This document shows positions 2,558 to 27,760 of a stretch of 64,000 nt of DNA, piece after piece (position 1 is the first letter of the stretch; the number at the start of each line of letters is the position of its first letter). This stretch comes from Roseinatronobacter thiooxidans. GTDB lineage: Bacteria > Pseudomonadota > Alphaproteobacteria > Rhodobacterales > Rhodobacteraceae. The stretch is taken from assembly GCF_001870675.1 (NCBI RefSeq), contig NZ_MEHT01000004.1, forward strand, positions 1 to 64,000, read 5' to 3'. Made by a program: the position numbers and the translations under genes. A model generated the notes under the pieces. The model was given only the letters and a program-made list of their open reading frames with translations. It was not told the origin of the DNA and ran no database searches.

Positions 2558-3019
2558 TCAGGATGCAGCGTCGACTGCTGCGATCAGTTCAGCGGCGCTT
2601 GGCTGGTTGGGATTGGGGGTAAGGCCGCGTTCTTTGGCGACAATCTCGCTGATGTAGCGGCGTTCGGCCCAGAACCGGGCTGTATCCAGATCACCTTCGG
2701 CCAGCGCATTCAGAGAGTTCCGCGATTGCCCACCCGCAGCGGCAAGCAATTCGTCATCAGTGCGGTCACGAAAGAGCGCAAGGGCATTTCTCTGTGCCAC
2801 GGGCACATGTCGCAAGAATTCGAAGCCATCCATAACGAAAATGCCATCCGAAACCCGCCCAGAGCTGAGCGCCGCGCCAATCGCGTCGCCCACGCTGGAG
2901 GTGCCAGTGCGCACAGCCGCAACACTTGTCAGGCCCAAGCCCACCAAAGCGGCTGTCAACACCACCCAGTCAACTGTCACAGCACCATCCTCGGCCTGCA
3001 GAAAATACGATAAGGACAT
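2558..3019 (-). CDS. Flp-pilin-like N-terminal module protein, copy 1
   Basis: This 153-residue protein begins MSLSYFLQAEDG and continues with AVTVDWVVLTAALVGLGL. The layout matches a Flp/Fap prepilin (short basic leader, glycine, then a hydrophobic helix), but the usual E+5 Y+6 is D W. The remaining hundred residues are hydrophilic (FVMDGFEFLRHVPV, DDELLAAAGGQS, FWAERRYISEIVAKERGL) and match no family I know. The ATG at 3019 is chosen because the paralogue starts at nearly the same place; its two-codon-earlier ATG is ACA here. It lies downstream of the type I secretion operon on the same strand and is one half of a tandem duplication. Function unknown; a surface or secreted protein is plausible. 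Confidence 0.7.
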   Translation of the reverse strand: MSLSYFLQAEDGAVTVDWVVLTAALVGLGLTSVAAVRTGTSSVGDAIGAALSSGRVSDGIFVMDGFEFLRHVPVAQRNALALFRDRTDDELLAAAGGQSRNSLNALAEGDLDTARFWAERRYISEIVAKERGLTPNPNQPSAAELIAAVDAAS

Positions 3020-3088
3020 TTTTGTTACCAAACCTGTGATCCCTCCAAATGCTGTTTTCTGACTCATAATCGTGGTGAAACTCTGGCG
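2874..3088. repeat. Tandem duplication, left copy
   Basis: Bases 2874-3053 align without gaps to 3577-3756 with 16 differences (about 91% identity). Weaker similarity continues to about 3088, with the shared GTGAAACT. The copied stretch spans the leader, the hydrophobic module and about 50 bases upstream of the two pilin-like genes, but not their C-terminal parts. Confidence 0.9.
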
Positions 3089-3296
3089 CGACCAAGGTTT
3101 CAGACGCGCGGCACCCAAAGCGAACATGACGCGCGGTCTGGATGCGACGTTGGCCCGATCAAGCGCTACGACTCTGGAAAGCCCGAGATGGAAGCCTGTC
3201 TGCGTTCACGCATGACAATTTCGCTTTTGCAGCGGTATTTTATCCAGAATCGCGGTGTTGTGGTGTTGCCTATGGGCCGCGCCGCGCTCTTGGGCA

Positions 3297-3728
3297 TCAG
3301 TTCCAACAGGCCATAGTATGCAGTTGGTCACAGCGCGTTGCACCTTCAGGTGCCTCAAGCGTCAACCCGCGCTTTGCCAATTCCTCCAGCCCGATCTGCT
3401 GTTGCATGGCGATGCTGTTATCACTGAATACTCCCCTTTTTTCTTCCCACCAATACCAGTGCATTCTCAAGCGGTTGTCCCCGAATCCTGCAACTTGCAA
3501 ACGCACGTTTTCAGCATGCGCAACAAGATCTACATCAAGGGTCCAAGGATGCGGCATCGTGTAATTCATAAGGCTCGCGCCAATAGCGTCGCCCACGCTG
3601 GAGGTGCCAGTGCGCACAGCCGCAACACTTGTCAGGCCCATGCCCACCAGAGCGGCTGTCAACACCACCCAATCAACTGTCACAGCGCCATCCTCAGCGC
3701 GCAGAAAATATGACAAGGACATCTTCAT
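3297..3728 (-). CDS. Flp-pilin-like N-terminal module protein, copy 2
   Basis: This 143-residue paralogue starts MKMSLSYFLRAEDG and shares the first 50 or so residues almost exactly with its neighbour, including AVTVDWVVLTAALVGMGL and VRTGTSSVGDAIGA. After GASL the sequence is unrelated: MHWYWWEEKRGVF, IAMQQQIGLEELAKRGL and a final HTMACWN. By analogy to Flp prepilins, cleavage would follow Gly14, with Asp at +5 and Trp at +6. The gene starts 117 bases after the hlyD-like gene on the same strand, so read-through from the secretion operon is possible. No function can be assigned from the C-terminal half. Confidence 0.7.
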   Translation of the reverse strand: MKMSLSYFLRAEDGAVTVDWVVLTAALVGMGLTSVAAVRTGTSSVGDAIGASLMNYTMPHPWTLDVDLVAHAENVRLQVAGFGDNRLRMHWYWWEEKRGVFSDNSIAMQQQIGLEELAKRGLTLEAPEGATRCDQLHTMACWN

Positions 3729-3845: not shown

Positions 3846-5156
3846 TCATTCCCGAAAGGCGCGATCCTTGACGCGGACAACTGGTGTCGTCAGGTATTCA
3901 AGCACCGATTTGCGGCCGGACAGCATGTCGATTTCTGTCACCATGCCCGGCATCACCTCGACCACCACCCCATCACGGTCGAGGAAGTTATCTTCCGTGC
4001 GGACATGAACAACAAAGAATTCTTCCGGATCACGTTCGGACCTTGTCACAGCATCAGCCCCGATGCGGGTAATCTCGCCATTCAGGCTGCCATAGCGCGA
4101 GAAGTCATAGGCGGTGACCTTCACCTTCACCGGCTGGCCGGGATAGACAAAGGCAATATCGGCAGGGCGCACATAGGCTTCGACCAGAAGCGTGTCATCC
4201 AGCGGCACAATCTCGATCAGGTCTTCGCCGGGCCGCGCAAGGCTGCCAAGGGTAGAGCGGTGAATGCGGTTCACCACCCCGCGCATGGGCGCGCGGATGG
4301 CGGCGCGGTCTGCGCGGTCGCGCAATGCAGGCAGGCTGGGTTCCAATGCCGCCAGTTCCGCTGTGGCAAGGGCCAGATCAGACAGGGCAGCGGCACGCCC
4401 GCGCGCGCGCAGGGCGCGGATCTGGTCATCAATCTCGTCCAGCCCCGCTTGCAGGCGCGCGATGCTGGCGCGTGCGCGGGTTTCGCGGCCACGCCACTCG
4501 GACTCGCGGCGGCGCATTTCCAGCAATGTGGTTTCCGGCTCGACCCGGCGGCGCACAAGCGGTTCCATCATGGCCCGTTCTTCCGACAGAATGACCAGCG
4601 TTTCGCGCGCGGTTTCCAGATCGACCTGCCCTTCGGCAAATTGTTCCTGCCGTTGGTTGCGCTGGCGTTCCAGAATGTTGATTTCTGAGGCGAGTTCGTC
4701 CTGTCGGGCATGATACAGCGCCGTTTCAGAACGCACGACCGCAGGGGCCTGTGCGATCAACACATCCGAAAAGGCCAGATCGACGCGGTCAATCTCTGCC
4801 TGCAACCGCTCGATCCGGGCCATCAGCCCATAGGCGCGTTGCTGTTCCTGATCCAGCTGGCTGGACAGTTGCGTCCCGTCCAGCTCCATCAGGATATGCC
4901 CCTCTTCGACAATGTCGCCTTCCGAGACATGCAGCGCTTGCAGCACCCCCGGTTCGGTGGCCTGAATAAGCTGCAAATCGCGCGAGGGGACGATGCGCCC
5001 TTCGGCGCGGGTGACATCATCAATCTCGGTGCGCGCGGCCCAGACGCCGGCTGACAGGAAGAACAGCAAGATCACCGCCAGCAACAGGCTGCCGCGCCAG
5101 CTTTGGCGGCCCTGCATTTCGCGCGCAAGGCTGTCGAGATCATGTCTGCGTGCCAT
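3846..5156 (-). CDS. HlyD-family type I secretion periplasmic adaptor
   Basis: This 436-residue membrane-fusion protein links the ABC transporter to the outer-membrane channel. A short cytosolic start is followed by one membrane helix (SLLLAVILLFFLSAGVWA), a lipoyl half-domain (ATEPGVLQALHVSEGDIVEEG), long coiled-coil hairpin helices rich in Glu, Arg and Leu (about residues 95-270), and the C-terminal beta-barrel (DDTLLVEAYVRPADIAFVYP, then MVTEIDMLSGRKSVLEYL). Its ATG overlaps the end of the ABC transporter gene by 17 bases and has a G-rich ribosome site directly upstream. Length and architecture are those of HlyD/LapC adaptors; the substrate is not shown by sequence. Confidence 0.93.
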   Translation of the reverse strand: MARRHDLDSLAREMQGRQSWRGSLLLAVILLFFLSAGVWAARTEIDDVTRAEGRIVPSRDLQLIQATEPGVLQALHVSEGDIVEEGHILMELDGTQLSSQLDQEQQRAYGLMARIERLQAEIDRVDLAFSDVLIAQAPAVVRSETALYHARQDELASEINILERQRNQRQEQFAEGQVDLETARETLVILSEERAMMEPLVRRRVEPETTLLEMRRRESEWRGRETRARASIARLQAGLDEIDDQIRALRARGRAAALSDLALATAELAALEPSLPALRDRADRAAIRAPMRGVVNRIHRSTLGSLARPGEDLIEIVPLDDTLLVEAYVRPADIAFVYPGQPVKVKVTAYDFSRYGSLNGEITRIGADAVTRSERDPEEFFVVHVRTEDNFLDRDGVVVEVMPGMVTEIDMLSGRKSVLEYLTTPVVRVKDRAFRE

Positions 5157-7308
5157 CTGCCCCCCCTTTTACACCACCACGCGACAGTATCGCTTTCGGC
5201 CCGTCCGCCGCCACGCGGCCCTGATCAATCACGATCACGCGGTCCACCAGTTCCAACAGGCTGGTGCGGTGGGTGACGATCACCAAGGTGCGGTCTGCCA
5301 TCTCGGTTTTCAGCCGCGCAATCACGCCCGCTTCATTTTGCACATCCATGCTCGATGTCGGCTCGTCCATCAGCATGATCGGGCGCCGCCCCAGCAGCGC
5401 GCGCGCCAGCGTGATCGCCTGTTTCTGGCCCCCCGACAGCCCTTCGCCGCGTTCGGCCAGCATCATGTCATAGCCCGAGGGGTGGCGGCGCACAAAATCC
5501 TCGACGCCCGCGATGCGCGCGGCCTCGATAATCTCGTGGTCGCGCGCCTGCATTGCCCCGATGGCGATATTCTCGCGCACCGTGCCCGAAAACAGCCAGA
5601 TATCTTGCAGCACAGATCCCATATTGCGCCGCAGATCGCCCGGATCGATCTGGCGGATATCGACGCCATCCACCAGAACCGCCCCTTCGCGGGGCTGGTA
5701 CAGCCCCAGCATCAGCCGCGCGACAGTGCTTTTGCCAGAGCCGATCCGGCCCAGAATAGCAACTTTCTCGCCCGGTTTGATGGTGAAAGAGATATCGCGC
5801 AGCGCGTCCACTGTCTGGTCGGGATAGGCGAAAGACACCCCGTCAAACTTGATCTCGCCATCCAGTTTTGGGCGCGAGATCCAGCCCTTGCCCTCTGGTC
5901 GCTCGCTCTCGGCCTTCATCAGCGCATCCAGACTGCGATAAGAGGTGCGCGCCTGATTGAACCGCGTCAGCGTCTGCGCAAGCTGCGCCAGCGGGGCCAA
6001 TGTGCGCCCTGTCAGGATCACGCCTGCAATCAGCGCGCCCATGCTGACCTCGCCCGCTGTGATCAGGAACACACCGTAGAACACGATCATCACCTGCGCG
6101 GCCTGCTGGGCAAAGGCAGTGGCGTTGATGGCAAATTGCGTCACAGCGCGGCTTTTCAAACCGTGATCAGACTGGCGCGCTATCGCGTCTTCCCAGCGCG
6201 CGCGCATCTGGCGTTGTGCGCCTGCGGCCTTGATGGTTTCCAGCCCTGACAGGGTTTCCACCAGAACCCCCTGCTTGGACTGCCCGTCTGCAAAGCTTTT
6301 CTCGGCCAGACGCGCCAGAACCGGCTGCACCGCGATGCCCACAATCAGCACAAAGGGCACCGCCAGCGCAGGCACAATCGCCAATGGCCCGCCGATCAGA
6401 TAGATCACCCCGATGAACAGCAGGATGAACGGCAGGTCCACCACAGCCACCAATGTGGCCGAGGTGAAGAAATCGCGCAAAGTTTCAAACTCGCGCAGGG
6501 TGCTGGCCAGCGCGCCAGTGGAACCTTTGCGCGCGCGCATCTGCAAATCCAGAATCTGGTCGAAAATCCGCCGCCCCATGACCAGATCAGCCCGCTGGCC
6601 CGCGCGGTCGATAAAGCCCGCGCGCAAGGATTTGATCAGGAAATCGAACATCAGCGCAATACCCACCCCCACGGTCAAGGCAATCAGCGATTCGATCGCT
6701 TCATTCGGCAAGACACGGTCATACACCACCATGATGAACAAAGACGTGGACAGGCTAAGGAAGTTCGCCAGCACGGCGGCCAGCAAAACCTGACTATAGG
6801 CCCAACGGTTTTCCGCCAGTGTGGACCAGAACCAATGCCCCTGCCGCCCGGTCGCATTCAGCGCAATATCTTCACGATGCTCGGCCCGCATCAGCAGCGC
6901 GAAACCGGTATAGGCCGCATCCAGCTTCTCGCGGGCAATCACCCCCACCCCCTGCCCCAAGGCAGGGTCAAAAAGGGCCAGCCGCTCATCTGCCAGCACA
7001 TCTTCCAGCACCACGGCGCGATCCTCATCCAGTATCAGGATGGCAGGCGTCAGGCTGGTGTCAAAATCCTTCAACGCGCGCCTGCCAAAACCGGCTTGCA
7101 GGCCCGCGCGTTCTGCGGCGGTGATGACATCGCGCAGCGTCACACTGCCCTTTGCCCCCGATTGCGCGGCCTGCAATGCCGCCAATGTCATGGGCCTGTC
7201 CAGACTGGCCGCGACATGCAGCGCGCAAGCTTCCAGCGCGGTCATATCATCAGGCTCAGTCCCGGTTGGCGCCGTTGCATAGGGTTCTATGTCGCGCTGC
7301 TCGTTCAT
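5140..7308 (-). CDS. Type I secretion permease/ATPase (LssB/LapB-like)
   Basis: This 722-residue half-transporter powers export. The first roughly 150 residues form a C39-peptidase-like domain without the expected catalytic Cys/His arrangement, so it probably recognises rather than cuts the substrate, as in HlyB and LapB. Six membrane helices follow (about 165-450). The nucleotide-binding domain has Walker A GRIGSGKST, signature LSGGQ, Walker B IMLMDEPTSSMD and the H-loop VTHRT. The start ATG overlaps the stop of the tolC-like gene in an ATGA arrangement, so translation is coupled. No RTX toxin or giant adhesin lies next to it, which is unusual for this subtype. Confidence 0.93.
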   Translation of the reverse strand: MNEQRDIEPYATAPTGTEPDDMTALEACALHVAASLDRPMTLAALQAAQSGAKGSVTLRDVITAAERAGLQAGFGRRALKDFDTSLTPAILILDEDRAVVLEDVLADERLALFDPALGQGVGVIAREKLDAAYTGFALLMRAEHREDIALNATGRQGHWFWSTLAENRWAYSQVLLAAVLANFLSLSTSLFIMVVYDRVLPNEAIESLIALTVGVGIALMFDFLIKSLRAGFIDRAGQRADLVMGRRIFDQILDLQMRARKGSTGALASTLREFETLRDFFTSATLVAVVDLPFILLFIGVIYLIGGPLAIVPALAVPFVLIVGIAVQPVLARLAEKSFADGQSKQGVLVETLSGLETIKAAGAQRQMRARWEDAIARQSDHGLKSRAVTQFAINATAFAQQAAQVMIVFYGVFLITAGEVSMGALIAGVILTGRTLAPLAQLAQTLTRFNQARTSYRSLDALMKAESERPEGKGWISRPKLDGEIKFDGVSFAYPDQTVDALRDISFTIKPGEKVAILGRIGSGKSTVARLMLGLYQPREGAVLVDGVDIRQIDPGDLRRNMGSVLQDIWLFSGTVRENIAIGAMQARDHEIIEAARIAGVEDFVRRHPSGYDMMLAERGEGLSGGQKQAITLARALLGRRPIMLMDEPTSSMDVQNEAGVIARLKTEMADRTLVIVTHRTSLLELVDRVIVIDQGRVAADGPKAILSRGGVKGGADGTQT

Positions 7309-8678
7309 GCGCCATCCCCGGTTATTGCCGGAACAGGCGCATCATCGGTCGGACTTGGCAGCGAGATTGCAAACGCATCCAGAATATCGCCCGTCAGCGC
7401 CAGCGCGGCATAGCCTGACAGCGCAACTTCGCGCTCGGCTGCGATCAGCGTCTCATTCGCTTCAAACAGATCGCGTTGCGCGTCCAGCAAGCCCAGAAGC
7501 GAGCGCCGCCCAATCGAGAATTCTTCGCGCGACGCATCGACCGTGGCGCGGTTGGCGGTTACGGCCTCGCGCGCTGCGGCAACACGCGCGGCCCCTGCCC
7601 GCTGGTCAGAGCGCAAATCGGCGAGCGCGCGCGCAATGTCACGCGCCAGCCCCTCACGCTCGGCGCGCACAGCATCCAGCTGCGCTTCGGCGGCGCGAAT
7701 GCGCGCTTGCTGGCTGCCCGGCGCACCGGGATCATACACCACATCCAGATTTGCACTGCTTGTGCCGCGCTGCGCTCTGCCTTCAACCTGTAATTGTGGG
7801 AACCGCTGTGATCTGGCGACAGCGACATCGGCCTTTGCAGCAGCAATTCGCGCCTCCATGCCCAGAATTCGCGGGCTGGTGACGATCAACTCTTCATCCG
7901 AGGCGCGCGGCAGATTCGGCGCGCGGGGCGGTTCCGGCAATGCAGGGCCGGGGCGCTGGCCGAAACTGGCACCAAAGCCTGCCTCGGCACGCTCGACCCG
8001 CGCATCCGCTTCAGCCGCACGCGCCCGTGCCGTGGCCAGACGCGCCCGCGCGGTCAACACATCGGACCCCGCGCCCGCGCCTGCATCCGCGCGCTCTTGC
8101 ACCTGCGTCAGAACAGTCTGATGCGCGCGGACATTTTCCCCCGCAATGCGCGCACGCTCGCGCGCGGCGCGCAGATCATACCACGCAGCGACCGAGTCCA
8201 GCGTCAGCGCTGCCGCCAGTTCCTGCCGCCCGCCGCGCTGCTCGAACACCCGCGCCTGTGCCGCGACCTGTTTGCTGGCCGATTCCCCGCCGTCAAACAC
8301 AAGCTGCATGACCTGCAAGACAGGGCTGATGCTGTTGCCGCTGACTGTTCCGTTTACAATCGATCCCAAGGTCGCGCCCAAAGAAAACCTTGGGTAAAAA
8401 CCGCGCCCCTCTGCCTCGGCGCGGGCTTGCGCGGCGCGCACGCCCGCACTGGAAGAGGCCAGTTGCGGATGGCTTTCAACCGCCTGCATCACTTGCCGGC
8501 CAAATGCGCTGCGCGCAACATCCGCCGACACACGCGCAGCCCGCATATCGGGCGGCGCATCAAAGCTGGCGCGAATCTCGTCCAGATCGGGTTTCGGGGC
8601 GCAACCGCTTAGCAACGCCACCCCCAGCAGCACCATTACAGCCTTGTGCGGCACGATAAACCCGGTGGCGGTGGTCAT
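7305..8678 (-). CDS. TolC-family outer-membrane channel lipoprotein
   Basis: This protein of about 457 residues is the outer-membrane part of the type I secretion system. The N-terminus MTTATGFIVPHKAVMVLLG leads to a lipobox LLSGC, so it is probably lipid-anchored. The rest shows two repeated helical halves rich in Ala, Arg and Glu, as expected of TolC/RND outer factors (for example VRAAQARAEAEGRGFYPRF in the first half and RIAAAKADVAVARSQRFPQL in the second). An upstream in-frame ATG at 8705 would add nine residues; the lipobox position fits either start. It is the first gene of the operon. Confidence 0.88.
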   Translation of the reverse strand: MTTATGFIVPHKAVMVLLGVALLSGCAPKPDLDEIRASFDAPPDMRAARVSADVARSAFGRQVMQAVESHPQLASSSAGVRAAQARAEAEGRGFYPRFSLGATLGSIVNGTVSGNSISPVLQVMQLVFDGGESASKQVAAQARVFEQRGGRQELAAALTLDSVAAWYDLRAARERARIAGENVRAHQTVLTQVQERADAGAGAGSDVLTARARLATARARAAEADARVERAEAGFGASFGQRPGPALPEPPRAPNLPRASDEELIVTSPRILGMEARIAAAKADVAVARSQRFPQLQVEGRAQRGTSSANLDVVYDPGAPGSQQARIRAAEAQLDAVRAEREGLARDIARALADLRSDQRAGAARVAAAREAVTANRATVDASREEFSIGRRSLLGLLDAQRDLFEANETLIAAEREVALSGYAALALTGDILDAFAISLPSPTDDAPVPAITGDGA

Positions 8679-8705
8679 CTTTGACCCGGAAAGCCTTGAA
8701 AACAT

Positions 8706-9059
8706 GCCCAGCTCAACCTTTATCTCAAATTCGTATCGCAAAATAATTTAACGTGAACGCTGTGTGGCCCCGCACTGAACACAACCAGCGACGATACCAG
8801 AGAATCTCTTTCAACTTCAGAAATAGTCCTAGTCCATTTTGCGCAACAGCGCCACGCCTACTGGTAAAAATCTCGGACAGAGACGGGTTTTCCACTGCGG
8901 CGGGGGTTTCACGCGTGCGCCCGTGTCGGAATTTTGTCCGAAATATAGACCAAAAACAGCTGAAGGGCACCCCTGCAAGGACGCACCTGACGCTATGAAG
9001 GCACTTTCTGAAACGCGCGAAAGATTAGCGCCCGTAGCAGCTGACGTCTGAAGGAAAAC
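8706..9059. other. Gene-free stretch between tRNA-Glu and the secretion operon
   Basis: This interval must hold the promoter of the minus-strand secretion operon. The 60 bases before the gene are AT-rich on the minus strand, but no hexamer pair with good spacing stood out. Short open frames here have no family features. I see no terminator with a T-run after the tRNA. Confidence 0.4.
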
Positions 9060-23413: not shown

Positions 23414-25862
<2,449 letters not shown>

Positions 25863-25879: not shown

Positions 25880-27520
25880 TCAGAATGATTCGGTAGAGGT
25901 TACGTTGCCGTCGACATCGCGGAAGATGCGTTGGGTCCGAATACCTACAACATAAATATCTTCGTATTGCCGCCCGTCATTATAGTTCACGATCGTATTA
26001 GAAATGCGGCCCATGCTGTCATACGAAGTGACCTGATCTGACCACCAGTGACGGTTCTGGACATCAACAACCGTCTGCTGCACAGGGCGATCAATGCCAG
26101 AATATGTGGTTACTGACTGGCGCCCGTCGCTATGGTTGATGTTGCGCAGCTGAATTCTGTTGAATTCATCAACCTGATACGTCCAGTCTGATGTACCGAC
26201 CACATTGCCTGCTGCGTTGAACTCGGTCCGATGGCTTATACGCCCCTGATCACGGGTCTCCAGATAAGAGGTGCCGTTGGTTCGCGTGACCGTGCGTTCA
26301 GCGATACGGTCGTTTTGATCAAAACGCAGGACCTCGGTTGCATACCCATGCTGATGCTGCGCGTGGGTAATCGTCTGTTCGGTACGCACACCGTTTTCGT
26401 GGGCTATAACAACCTGCCGTCCATCTGCGTGGCTGATATTCTGGCCAATCAGCCTGCCTGCTGCGTCCAAGGTGCGGGTTTCATTGCGCACAAACACGCC
26501 ATTCACGCCCGTATCTGTCAACGAGATCAGCCGCCCCGCTGCATCATATCCGCGCTCTTCCGTCGATACATGCTGATTATTGGCATCAAAGCGATTGGTC
26601 ATTGCAACGCGCCCGTCTGCATAGATGTGTTCGTTGCGTGTGCCGTCGTTGTTGGTGATATTGTGGCTGGCCACCTGCCCCTGTTCGTTCCAAGTCCAGT
26701 TCTGGTTGGTCCAGTTATGCGAATTGTCGGGGTCGGTCACAGTTTGCGACACGGCACGGCCATTTTCATATATCGTGTTCAGGATACGCCCGTCGCTATA
26801 ATCGATCCTGCGTTCCAGTTGCTGACCGTTTTCGGCCAGCACATAGCTATGCGCTTCGGTCGAGGTGATAATCCCTTCAGGGGTGCTGCGGACGCGTTCA
26901 ACCAACCGCCCGTCAACATGTTGATCCGCAATATTGTGGTTGTTGTTCAAAACCTCAAGTCTGGTCAGCATGCGGCCCTGCTCGTCATATGTCACATCGA
27001 TCGTTTTCCACGCATGGGCATTGTTTGGATCAGACCAATCCTGCGCGGTGCGCACACCATCTTCAAAGAATGTGTTGCGAATGCGCCCGTCATCATAATT
27101 GACATGTTCGGAAACCATCTGTCCGTTTTCGTCAAAATGTCTTACGATATTTTCCCAGTCATGGGTATTTTGCGGGTCGGTGATTTCAGTGCGGACCAGC
27201 TGACCGTCAACATAAACATCGGTCTGCACGCGCCCACCGGACAGAAGCGACGTTGAATAGGTTTCGATAACAGCTGGATCAATGCCGCTGAGACCCCCGA
27301 TATTCAAAGTCATCTCGCCCACCTGAACACTGTTGAGCGAATTCAGAATGCGCTGCCCCAGATCTTCAGACCCGTTGCGCACAACAACGGCCGAGCTGAT
27401 GCCCATCCCCACCGTCGCCGCCCCCAGAACGACCCAGTCAACTGTCATTGCGCCGCCTTCACGGCGGAAAAACTCCGCAATCAGTGCTGGTCGGACAATT
27501 TTGTTGAACAATCTAGCCAT
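25880..27520 (-). CDS. Flp-pilin-like leader fused to nine about 49-residue YD-like repeats
   Basis: This 546-residue protein shares the leader-plus-helix module of the two small proteins near 3 kb: FFRREGG then AMTVDWVVLGAATVGMGI, with Asp+5 and Trp+6 after Gly23. From about residue 97 to the end it is built from roughly nine units of 49 residues. Each unit has a DPxNxHxW segment, a YDExGRxxxxx segment and a closing DGR...ENG strand, resembling but not identical to RHS/YD beta-repeats; units are rich in Asn, Asp, His and Trp. The ATG at 27520 follows GAAAGG; a TTG at 27538 would add six residues. No adjacent RHS toxin, immunity or pilus gene is seen. It is probably an envelope or surface protein of unknown role. 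Confidence 0.75.
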   Translation of the reverse strand: MARLFNKIVRPALIAEFFRREGGAMTVDWVVLGAATVGMGISSAVVVRNGSEDLGQRILNSLNSVQVGEMTLNIGGLSGIDPAVIETYSTSLLSGGRVQTDVYVDGQLVRTEITDPQNTHDWENIVRHFDENGQMVSEHVNYDDGRIRNTFFEDGVRTAQDWSDPNNAHAWKTIDVTYDEQGRMLTRLEVLNNNHNIADQHVDGRLVERVRSTPEGIITSTEAHSYVLAENGQQLERRIDYSDGRILNTIYENGRAVSQTVTDPDNSHNWTNQNWTWNEQGQVASHNITNNDGTRNEHIYADGRVAMTNRFDANNQHVSTEERGYDAAGRLISLTDTGVNGVFVRNETRTLDAAGRLIGQNISHADGRQVVIAHENGVRTEQTITHAQHQHGYATEVLRFDQNDRIAERTVTRTNGTSYLETRDQGRISHRTEFNAAGNVVGTSDWTYQVDEFNRIQLRNINHSDGRQSVTTYSGIDRPVQQTVVDVQNRHWWSDQVTSYDSMGRISNTIVNYNDGRQYEDIYVVGIRTQRIFRDVDGNVTSTESF

Positions 27521-27760
27521 TGCAAAATAACCTTTCAAAACGCCTAAGCGATAGGAATTTGCAACTGGTAAGCGTTCTTTATGGTGTCACCAAGGCGCGA
27601 TTTGGGCATTTTTGCGAAGCATTGGCCGCTTTCATACCACATCTTTTGCGCAGCGGGGCACCAGCCCTGCGCCCGCTTGCGCCGCAGCTGACAGCCCACA
27701 AGACAGATTTCGGCGCGATGCCCAAGTGTGATTGCAGCCTGTCATGAAACGGCCCGCCAG

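What the first reader, a model, noticed from the sequence alone, without database searches (positions are those of the whole stretch)
25880..27520. About nine 49-residue repeats behind a pilin-like leader
The units keep DPxNxHxW, YDExGR and a closing DG with near-constant 49-residue spacing (two units counted at exactly 49). They resemble RHS/YD repeats, but the period is more than twice as long and the Asn-His-Trp signature is not one I know. Joined to the leader, this could be a fibre-like surface protein.
Basis: partly seen in the sequence, partly recalled or inferred. Interest (0 to 1): 0.65.

Follow-up and report, generated by a model that had tools for sequence, protein, structure and literature searches.

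The report
Pilin-anchored ribbon of beta-hairpin repeats
An alphaproteobacterium carries an extra gene that joins the front end of a Tad-type pilus subunit to a long ribbon of 18 beta-hairpins, a repeat that its relatives otherwise attach to secreted proteins; it is probably a domain grafted onto a pilus to give it an adhesive or spacer-like arm.

Summary
Window 25883-27520 (-) encodes 546 aa: a pilin-type leader, then aa 103-546 made of 18 beta-hairpins that alternate about 26 and 23 aa, which is nine 49-aa units' worth. The period is long because one unit is two hairpins. The Asn-His-Trp signature is this protein's version of a wider motif (D-x2-[DN]-x3-W). The same 49-aa unit, again at modal spacing 49, sits in other alphaproteobacterial proteins: RTX proteins, serralysin-type peptidases and giant open frames. 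No Pfam or NCBIfam model describes the unit. AlphaFold2 gives a confident single-layer antiparallel beta-ribbon (pLDDT 95.7 for four units), closest to OspA's exposed sheet, with local similarity to Rhs/teneurin hairpins. The leader belongs to a family-wide set of short pilins, one of which heads a complete tad locus in this genome. The gene is absent from all congeners searched; nine of them have gyrB and the transporter gene adjacent, so it is a lineage-specific insertion. Best reading: a modular Tad-type minor pilin displaying an elongated beta-ribbon (adhesin or spacer). Processing, pilus incorporation and binding are inferred, not shown.

The parts
25883..27520 (-). Whole gene, 546 aa (stop codon 25880-25882)
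   Evidence: ORF and translation; RBS-like AAAGG upstream of ATG 27520
27320..27490 (-). Pilin-type leader: basic N-terminus, predicted processing site after Gly23 (GG|AMTVDW, Asp at +5), hydrophobic helix about aa 25-48
   Evidence: Leader profile match in own genome at these coordinates, E 4.4e-25; leave-one-out 68.9 bits against 8.5 for the best shuffle; hydropathy peak
27215..27319 (-). Linker between pilin helix and repeats (aa 68-102)
   Evidence: Position between matched regions; low pLDDT to aa 84
27068..27214 (-). Unit 1 (aa 103-151), keeps DPQNTHDW
26921..27067 (-). Unit 2 (aa 152-200), keeps DPNNAHAW
26771..26920 (-). Unit 3 (aa 201-250), degenerate
26624..26770 (-). Unit 4 (aa 251-299), keeps DPDNSHNW
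26402..26623 (-). Unit 5 with one extra hairpin (aa 300-373, 74 aa)
26255..26401 (-). Unit 6 (aa 374-422)
26105..26254 (-). Unit 7 (aa 423-472), degenerate
25955..26104 (-). Unit 8 (aa 473-522), keeps DVQNRHWW
25883..25954 (-). Terminal half-unit (aa 523-546)
25837..25860 (.). Perfect 10-bp hairpin GGACGCCTGA-gtga-TCAGGCGTCC between the convergent stops of gyrB and this gene; possible shared terminator
   Evidence: read directly from the sequence

Best explanation
The gene encodes a modular Tad-type (type IVc) minor pilin. Its leader is cut by the prepilin peptidase of the tad locus on contig C45 and its first helix packs into, or caps, a Tad pilus (inferred). Through a short linker it then displays about 440 residues of a 49-aa two-hairpin repeat that fold into one open, single-layer antiparallel beta-ribbon of 37 predicted strands, roughly 18 nm long at 0.48 nm per strand. 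The ribbon acts outside the cell as an adhesive or spacer arm (inferred). The same repeat module is used by relatives at the ends of RTX and peptidase proteins of the type I-secreted kind, so the gene is a domain graft onto a pilin. It entered this lineage recently, between gyrB and a YeeE/YedE-like transporter gene. Shown computationally: repeat, fold prediction, leader family, tad locus, empty site. Inferred: cleavage, incorporation, location at tip or shaft, binding function.
For: Leader: leave-one-out match to the DW pilins, 68.9 bits. The family is present in 124 of 149 genomes of the bacterial family, mostly as 65-125 aa frames, often in tandem. In this genome a 71-aa member lies about 160 bp upstream of rcpC/cpaB in a locus with secretin, CpaE-like, TadA/CpaF, TadB, TadC, TPR (TadD-like) and Peptidase_A24 genes. 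That A24 peptidase is the only one detected in the genome. Four further paralogues carry other C-terminal parts of roughly 85-200 aa beyond the leader. Repeat. Same repeat in proteins bearing RTX nonapeptides and Peptidase_M10_C and in giant frames; all 18 other regions match this one by BLAST, 3e-7 or better. Two Cys in 6856 aa of repeat sequence, none here. Fold: pLDDT 95.7, pTM 0.83 for four units; best VIA Z 12.4 to OspA single-layer sheets. Precedent for grafted tips on Tad pili: CpaL pilin plus vWA (PMC12607857) and exchangeable Kil tips (PMC12075869); modular pilins (PMC10191384).
Against: The gene is not in a tad locus and was found in one genome only. The leader does not match Pfam Flp_Fap and is only weakly similar to the canonical Flp of the same genome (hhalign probability 17.5%); it has Asp, not Glu, at +5. 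No data on cleavage, expression or location. AlphaFold gave the leader low confidence, no leader homologues being in that alignment. BLAST values within the repeat family were computed without composition correction.
Confidence: 0.55

Rival explanations
1. The leader only anchors the protein: it stays in the inner membrane, uncleaved or cleaved, and the beta-ribbon works in the periplasm as a spacer or cell-wall contact, without entering a pilus.
For: Not encoded in a tad locus; Asp instead of Glu at +5; very long C-terminal part.
Against: The short family member in the tad locus has the same Asp-Trp, so Asp at +5 is evidently tolerated there; the same repeat elsewhere sits in RTX and peptidase proteins of the exported kind.
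Confidence: 0.22
2. A recently acquired orphan gene with little or no function in this strain, on its way to decay.
For: Absent from all congeners searched, with an empty gyrB-transporter site in nine; GC 0.53 and GC3 0.60 against 0.57-0.63 and 0.71-0.75 of neighbouring genes; several degenerate units.
Against: Intact frame with plausible RBS; hairpin pattern and predicted fold kept even in degenerate units.
Confidence: 0.15
3. An Rhs/YD-type protein: the repeats build a closed shell that carries or protects a cargo, as in Rhs, Tc C-subunit or teneurin proteins.
For: Foldseek top matches of the full model are Rhs cores, E 3.4e-13; YD_repeat_2x passes NCBI's cut-off.
Against: Global superposition favours open OspA sheets (Z 12.4-12.8) over Rhs/Tc (best Z 8.3 at 33 A rmsd); only 18 hairpins, no domain after the repeats, no DPxG core motif in the sequence; RHS_repeat is below Pfam's cut-off.
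Confidence: 0.04
4. A type I-secreted protein like its RTX relatives, the pilin-like leader being incidental.
For: The repeat's other carriers have RTX or serralysin domains; two paralogous leader genes lie beside a type I secretion operon in this window.
Against: No RTX nonapeptides; a hydrophobic N-terminal helix matching a large pilin family is not expected of a type I substrate; the C-terminus lacks the FLF/LLG-like endings of several relatives.
Confidence: 0.04

Closest known systems
Tad tip minor pilins with grafted domains (Caulobacter CpaL, TadG, Myxococcus KilN)
   Same: Pilin-type N-terminus followed by a large displayed module (PMC12607857, PMC12075869)
   Different: Module is a beta-hairpin ribbon, not vWA; leader is of the short Flp-like DW type; gene lies outside tad loci
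Flp-type major pilins (PF04964)
   Same: Leader layout: Gly before a helix with an acidic residue at +5 followed by an aromatic; the short family member heads a tad locus
   Different: No PF04964 match; Asp-Trp in place of Glu-Tyr; some 470 extra residues
Rhs/YD repeats (PF05593, TIGR01643), teneurins
   Same: Hairpin-forming Y-D-x-x-G-R units of 20-odd aa; local structural match
   Different: Two alternating hairpin types giving a 49-aa period; open sheet rather than shell (predicted); below PF05593 cut-off; no core motif or cargo
Borrelia OspA single-layer beta-sheet, natural and engineered
   Same: Best global structural match: free-standing antiparallel sheet exposed on both faces
   Different: No PF00820 match above cut-off; pilin leader instead of a lipoprotein signal; longer; 49-aa period
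MORN repeats (PF07661)
   Same: Open single-layer beta-meander, VIA Z about 8
   Different: MORN_2 score 13.2 against 29.6 needed
Uncatalogued 49-aa repeat at the ends of alphaproteobacterial RTX and serralysin-type proteins
   Same: Same unit, consensus and spacing
   Different: Those proteins carry RTX or peptidase domains and no pilin leader

Membership tests
49-aa two-hairpin repeat family (defined here) | Consensus with G4, D13, W20, G31, D41, G43 and period 49 | tested here: met
   Nine profile matches of 18-58 bits in this protein; 37 of 63 successive pairs in the set are spaced exactly 49
Rhs/YD repeat | PF05593 gathering score 22 | tested here: not met
   19.4 bits
Rhs/YD repeat | TIGR01643 cut-off 15.8 | tested here: met
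   21 bits here, but 12.0 for the near-perfect relative L047
Rhs/YD repeat | DPxG-type core motif and C-terminal cargo behind the repeats | tested here: not met
   No DPxG in the sequence and no domain after the repeats; the motif itself is recalled from knowledge of Rhs proteins
Rhs/YD repeat | Closed beta-shell | tested here: inconclusive
   Predicted model superposes best on open sheets; no solved structure
Modular Tad-type pilin | Pilin leader with Gly before a hydrophobic helix and acidic residue at +5 | tested here: met
   GG|AMTVDW; leave-one-out 68.9 bits to the DW pilin set
Modular Tad-type pilin | Grafted domain known outside pilus proteins | tested here: met
   Same repeat in RTX/serralysin proteins and giant frames
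Modular Tad-type pilin | Prepilin peptidase and Tad machine in the genome | tested here: met
Modular Tad-type pilin | Cleavage by the peptidase and presence in pili | not testable with these tools
   needs the bench
Flp_Fap (PF04964) | Pfam gathering score 32.2 | tested here: not met
   The gene is not among the genome's PF04964 matches; the short DW pilin of the tad locus is not either
RTX / type I secreted | PF00353 nonapeptide repeats | tested here: not met
   No PF00353 in this protein
OspA family (PF00820) | Pfam gathering score 25 | tested here: not met
   14.9 bits
Single-layer beta-sheet fold (OspA type) | Structural superposition of the predicted model | tested here: met
   Z 12.4, 6.5 A over 176 residues (3eex); Z 11.9, 3.0 A over 114 (5ys7); the tool warns that for repeats Z under about 13 may mean only a common arrangement
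MORN_2 (PF07661) | Pfam gathering score 29.6 | tested here: not met
   13.2 bits

The most novel reading that the evidence does not exclude
Rhodobacteraceae-type bacteria use a distinct Asp-Trp pilin leader as an exchangeable platform for grafting different domains onto Tad pili, and in this strain the graft is a free-standing single-layer beta-sheet ribbon about 18 nm long, so that a fibre is displayed on a fibre; the ribbon's 49-aa repeat is an undescribed extracellular module shared with type I-secreted proteins.
Probability: 0.4. Interest if true: 0.65.

Novelty: new variant of a known kind. Interest (0 to 1): 0.5.

Why it matters
It ties a widespread but uncatalogued extracellular repeat to a predicted fold, and shows that repeat grafted onto a pilin, which suggests how Tad pili of a large bacterial family may acquire new surface functions. 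Free-standing single-layer beta-sheets this long are rare among the solved structures matched here, where the long ones are engineered OspA; a natural 37-strand example would test how such sheets stay soluble. The DW leader family with varied C-terminal parts gives a concrete list of candidate minor pilins.

Tried and rejected
One search was a placeholder DNA query that only served to learn the genome handle. A single-protein scan of genome contigs found no relative, and tblastn of this protein found none in plasmids, nor of the repeat in phages: exact-peptide or pairwise searches miss this repeat, profiles do not. Pfam matches of the highly repetitive L047 stretch to DUF2644, PmbA_TldD, Argonaute and others were rejected as artefacts of near-identical repeats: mutually incompatible families, mostly with no single stretch passing. 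The sequence-profile match to OspA in the PDB (3e-7) was not taken as homology, because for the best chain no single stretch passes and engineered repeats dominate; the structural comparison was used instead. MAFFT stacked overlapping blocks of one protein on themselves, so non-overlapping blocks were used for folding. The antisense ORF 26231-27256 (+) was rejected as the gene. Literature searches for Tad pilins in Rhodobacter(ales/aceae) gave nothing specific.

Full report
The thing itself. The gene at window 25883-27520 on the minus strand (stop 25880-25882) encodes 546 aa. The ATG at 27520 has an AAAGG box ten bases upstream; the listed TTG start at 27538 overlaps it. Residues 1-67 are a pilin-type leader (FFRREGG|AMTVDWVVLGAATVGMG...), 68-102 a linker, 103-546 repeats. 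The protein has no cysteine, one lysine after the predicted processing site and pI about 5.

The repeat. Autocorrelation of the region peaks at lags 99, 49 and 148, with a minor peak at 26. The region divides without remainder into 18 consecutive segments that mostly begin with an aromatic residue and a D/N-G turn, alternating about 26 aa (A, carrying DPxNxHxW in the best copies) and about 23 aa (B, ending in a DG turn and a strand). Eight full A+B units, one extra hairpin inside unit 5 and a terminal half-unit make nine units' worth. Every unit is recognised by a profile made from the others, far above 500 shuffles each.

Where else it occurs. A profile of eight units found matches in 18 of 395 genomes of the family, including the window's own, many in long open frames (10320, 8365, 6401, 3474 and 2500 aa). 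After iteration the set has 138 matches with consensus YEDGVRTSVTVTDTADAFAWSSITTTFDAAGRLASRETTYDDGR plus five variable residues; 37 of 63 successive spacings are exactly 49. G4, D13, W20, G31, D41 and G43 are at least 90% conserved. All 18 other repeat regions match this protein by BLAST, from 3e-7 to 1.5e-41, with composition correction switched off. A wider profile reached other families of the same class, some with a shorter, about 38-aa spacing. Named examples are Loktanella, Antarctobacter, Sagittula and Maliponia, Leisingera, and plasmids of Rhizobium, Agrobacterium, Ensifer and Phyllobacterium, where products are called hypothetical, adhesin, Ig-like or Hint-domain protein. In the named genome loci the repeat lies at the C-terminus of proteins with RTX nonapeptide repeats and, in three, a Peptidase_M10_C domain. 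None of the carriers other than the window protein has the pilin leader within the DNA held. In the window's own genome the repeat occurs only in this gene.

Is it catalogued? Pfam: RHS_repeat 19.4 (needs 22), MORN_2 13.2 (29.6), Lipoprotein_1 14.9 (25). NCBIfam: YD_repeat_2x 21 (15.8), so this protein would be labelled YD repeat-containing, but the near-perfect relative L047 scores only 12.0. I found no model of the 49-aa unit in either library.

Fold. AlphaFold2 on the full protein with five relatives gave a regular meander of 37 strands from aa 98 on, pLDDT mostly 74-94 except around aa 210-230 and 450-460, and an unreliable leader. Four units alone, with seven sequences, gave pLDDT 95.7 and pTM 0.83, 16 strands in 197 residues. 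Foldseek ranks Rhs cores first for the full model (3.4e-13) and OspA first for the four-unit model (1.7e-8). Superposition favours the free-standing sheet of OspA (Z 12.4 over 176 residues at 6.5 A; Z 11.9 over 114 at 3.0 A), with CPAP/TCP10 and MORN sheets below; Rhs and Tc proteins superpose poorly (Z about 8 at 33 A). The tool cautions that for repeats such Z values may mean only a common arrangement, so I claim an open single-layer beta-meander, not kinship. The length of about 18 nm is my arithmetic from 37 strands at 0.48 nm.

The leader. The window's genome has five further genes with the same leader: 71 aa on C45, 160 aa on C7, 258 aa on C41, and two in this window at 3297-3728 (143 aa) and 2558-3127 (189 aa). 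A leader profile built without this protein recognises it at 68.9 bits (best shuffle 8.5), while the canonical Flp pilin of the same genome scores only 9.3. The family occurs in 124 of 149 genomes of the bacterial family, mostly as short frames, often in tandem. The 71-aa member lies about 160 bp upstream of an rcpC/cpaB gene in a locus with secretin, CpaE-like ATPase, TadA-type ATPase, TadB, TadC, a TPR protein and a Peptidase_A24 gene; that peptidase is the only one the genome search found. A second cluster on C17 has the canonical Flp. From context, the DW leader marks a Tad pilin subfamily that Pfam does not capture.

Genomic setting. The gene lies between gyrB and a YeeE/YedE-like transporter gene (naming of the latter by eye). 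In nine congeners, including two with 96-97% identical GyrB ends, gyrB and the transporter gene are directly adjacent; no congener searched has this gene. GC is 0.53 and GC3 0.60, against 0.57-0.63 and 0.71-0.75 for neighbours, a DW gene of the window (GC3 0.60) excepted. It is a lineage-specific acquisition.

Mechanism. Type 4 filaments are known to carry modular pilins in which domains not restricted to pili are grafted onto a pilin (PMC10191384). For Tad pili, CpaL of Caulobacter is predicted to be a pilin module fused to a vWA domain at the tip (PMC12607857), and the Kil pilus of Myxococcus has exchangeable tips (PMC12075869). The protein described here has the same logic with another graft: the leader would direct processing and membrane insertion, the helix would dock into the filament, and the ribbon would project. 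Steps shown here are computational only: leader family, tad machine, repeat kinship, predicted fold. Cleavage, incorporation, place along the filament and what the ribbon binds are inferred. I hold the pilin reading at 0.55, against membrane anchoring without pilus (0.22) and an idle recent acquisition (0.15).

Novelty. The kind (modular pilin with a displayed arm) is known; the leader subtype, the uncatalogued 49-aa two-hairpin repeat and their fusion are new variants. I found no description of the repeat in the open literature searched, which was limited.

Noticed in passing
window 2558-3127 (-) and 3297-3728 (-): Two further DW-leader genes (189 and 143 aa) lie directly downstream of, and on the same strand as, a type I secretion operon (TolC-like 7305-8741, ABC 5140-7308, HlyD 3846-5156); whether the systems are linked is unknown.
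   Followed up: partly
G000:C41:246352-246609, L082:3749-6616: A 258-aa DW-leader protein with a C-terminal part that looks jelly-roll-like by eye (no Pfam match) sits next to a ParE/GyrB-like gene, while the gene reported here sits next to gyrB; possibly coincidence.
   Followed up: no
L047 (G124:C6): A 10,320-aa open frame ends in about 11 copies, several near-identical, of the 49-aa repeat.
   Followed up: partly
L069, L087, L102, L106: A variant of the repeat with about 38-aa spacing occurs in other proteins, some in other families of the same class.
   Followed up: partly
L079 and L080: The genome has two tad-type clusters, one headed by the DW pilin (C45) and one with canonical Flp (C17), which suggests two Tad pili.
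   Followed up: partly
window 25837-25860: Perfect 10-bp hairpin across the gyrB stop codon, 20 bases from this gene's stop: probably a shared terminator.
   Followed up: no
window 26231-27256 (+): A 341-aa antisense ORF mirrors the repeat region; taken as a by-product of codon usage.
   Followed up: no
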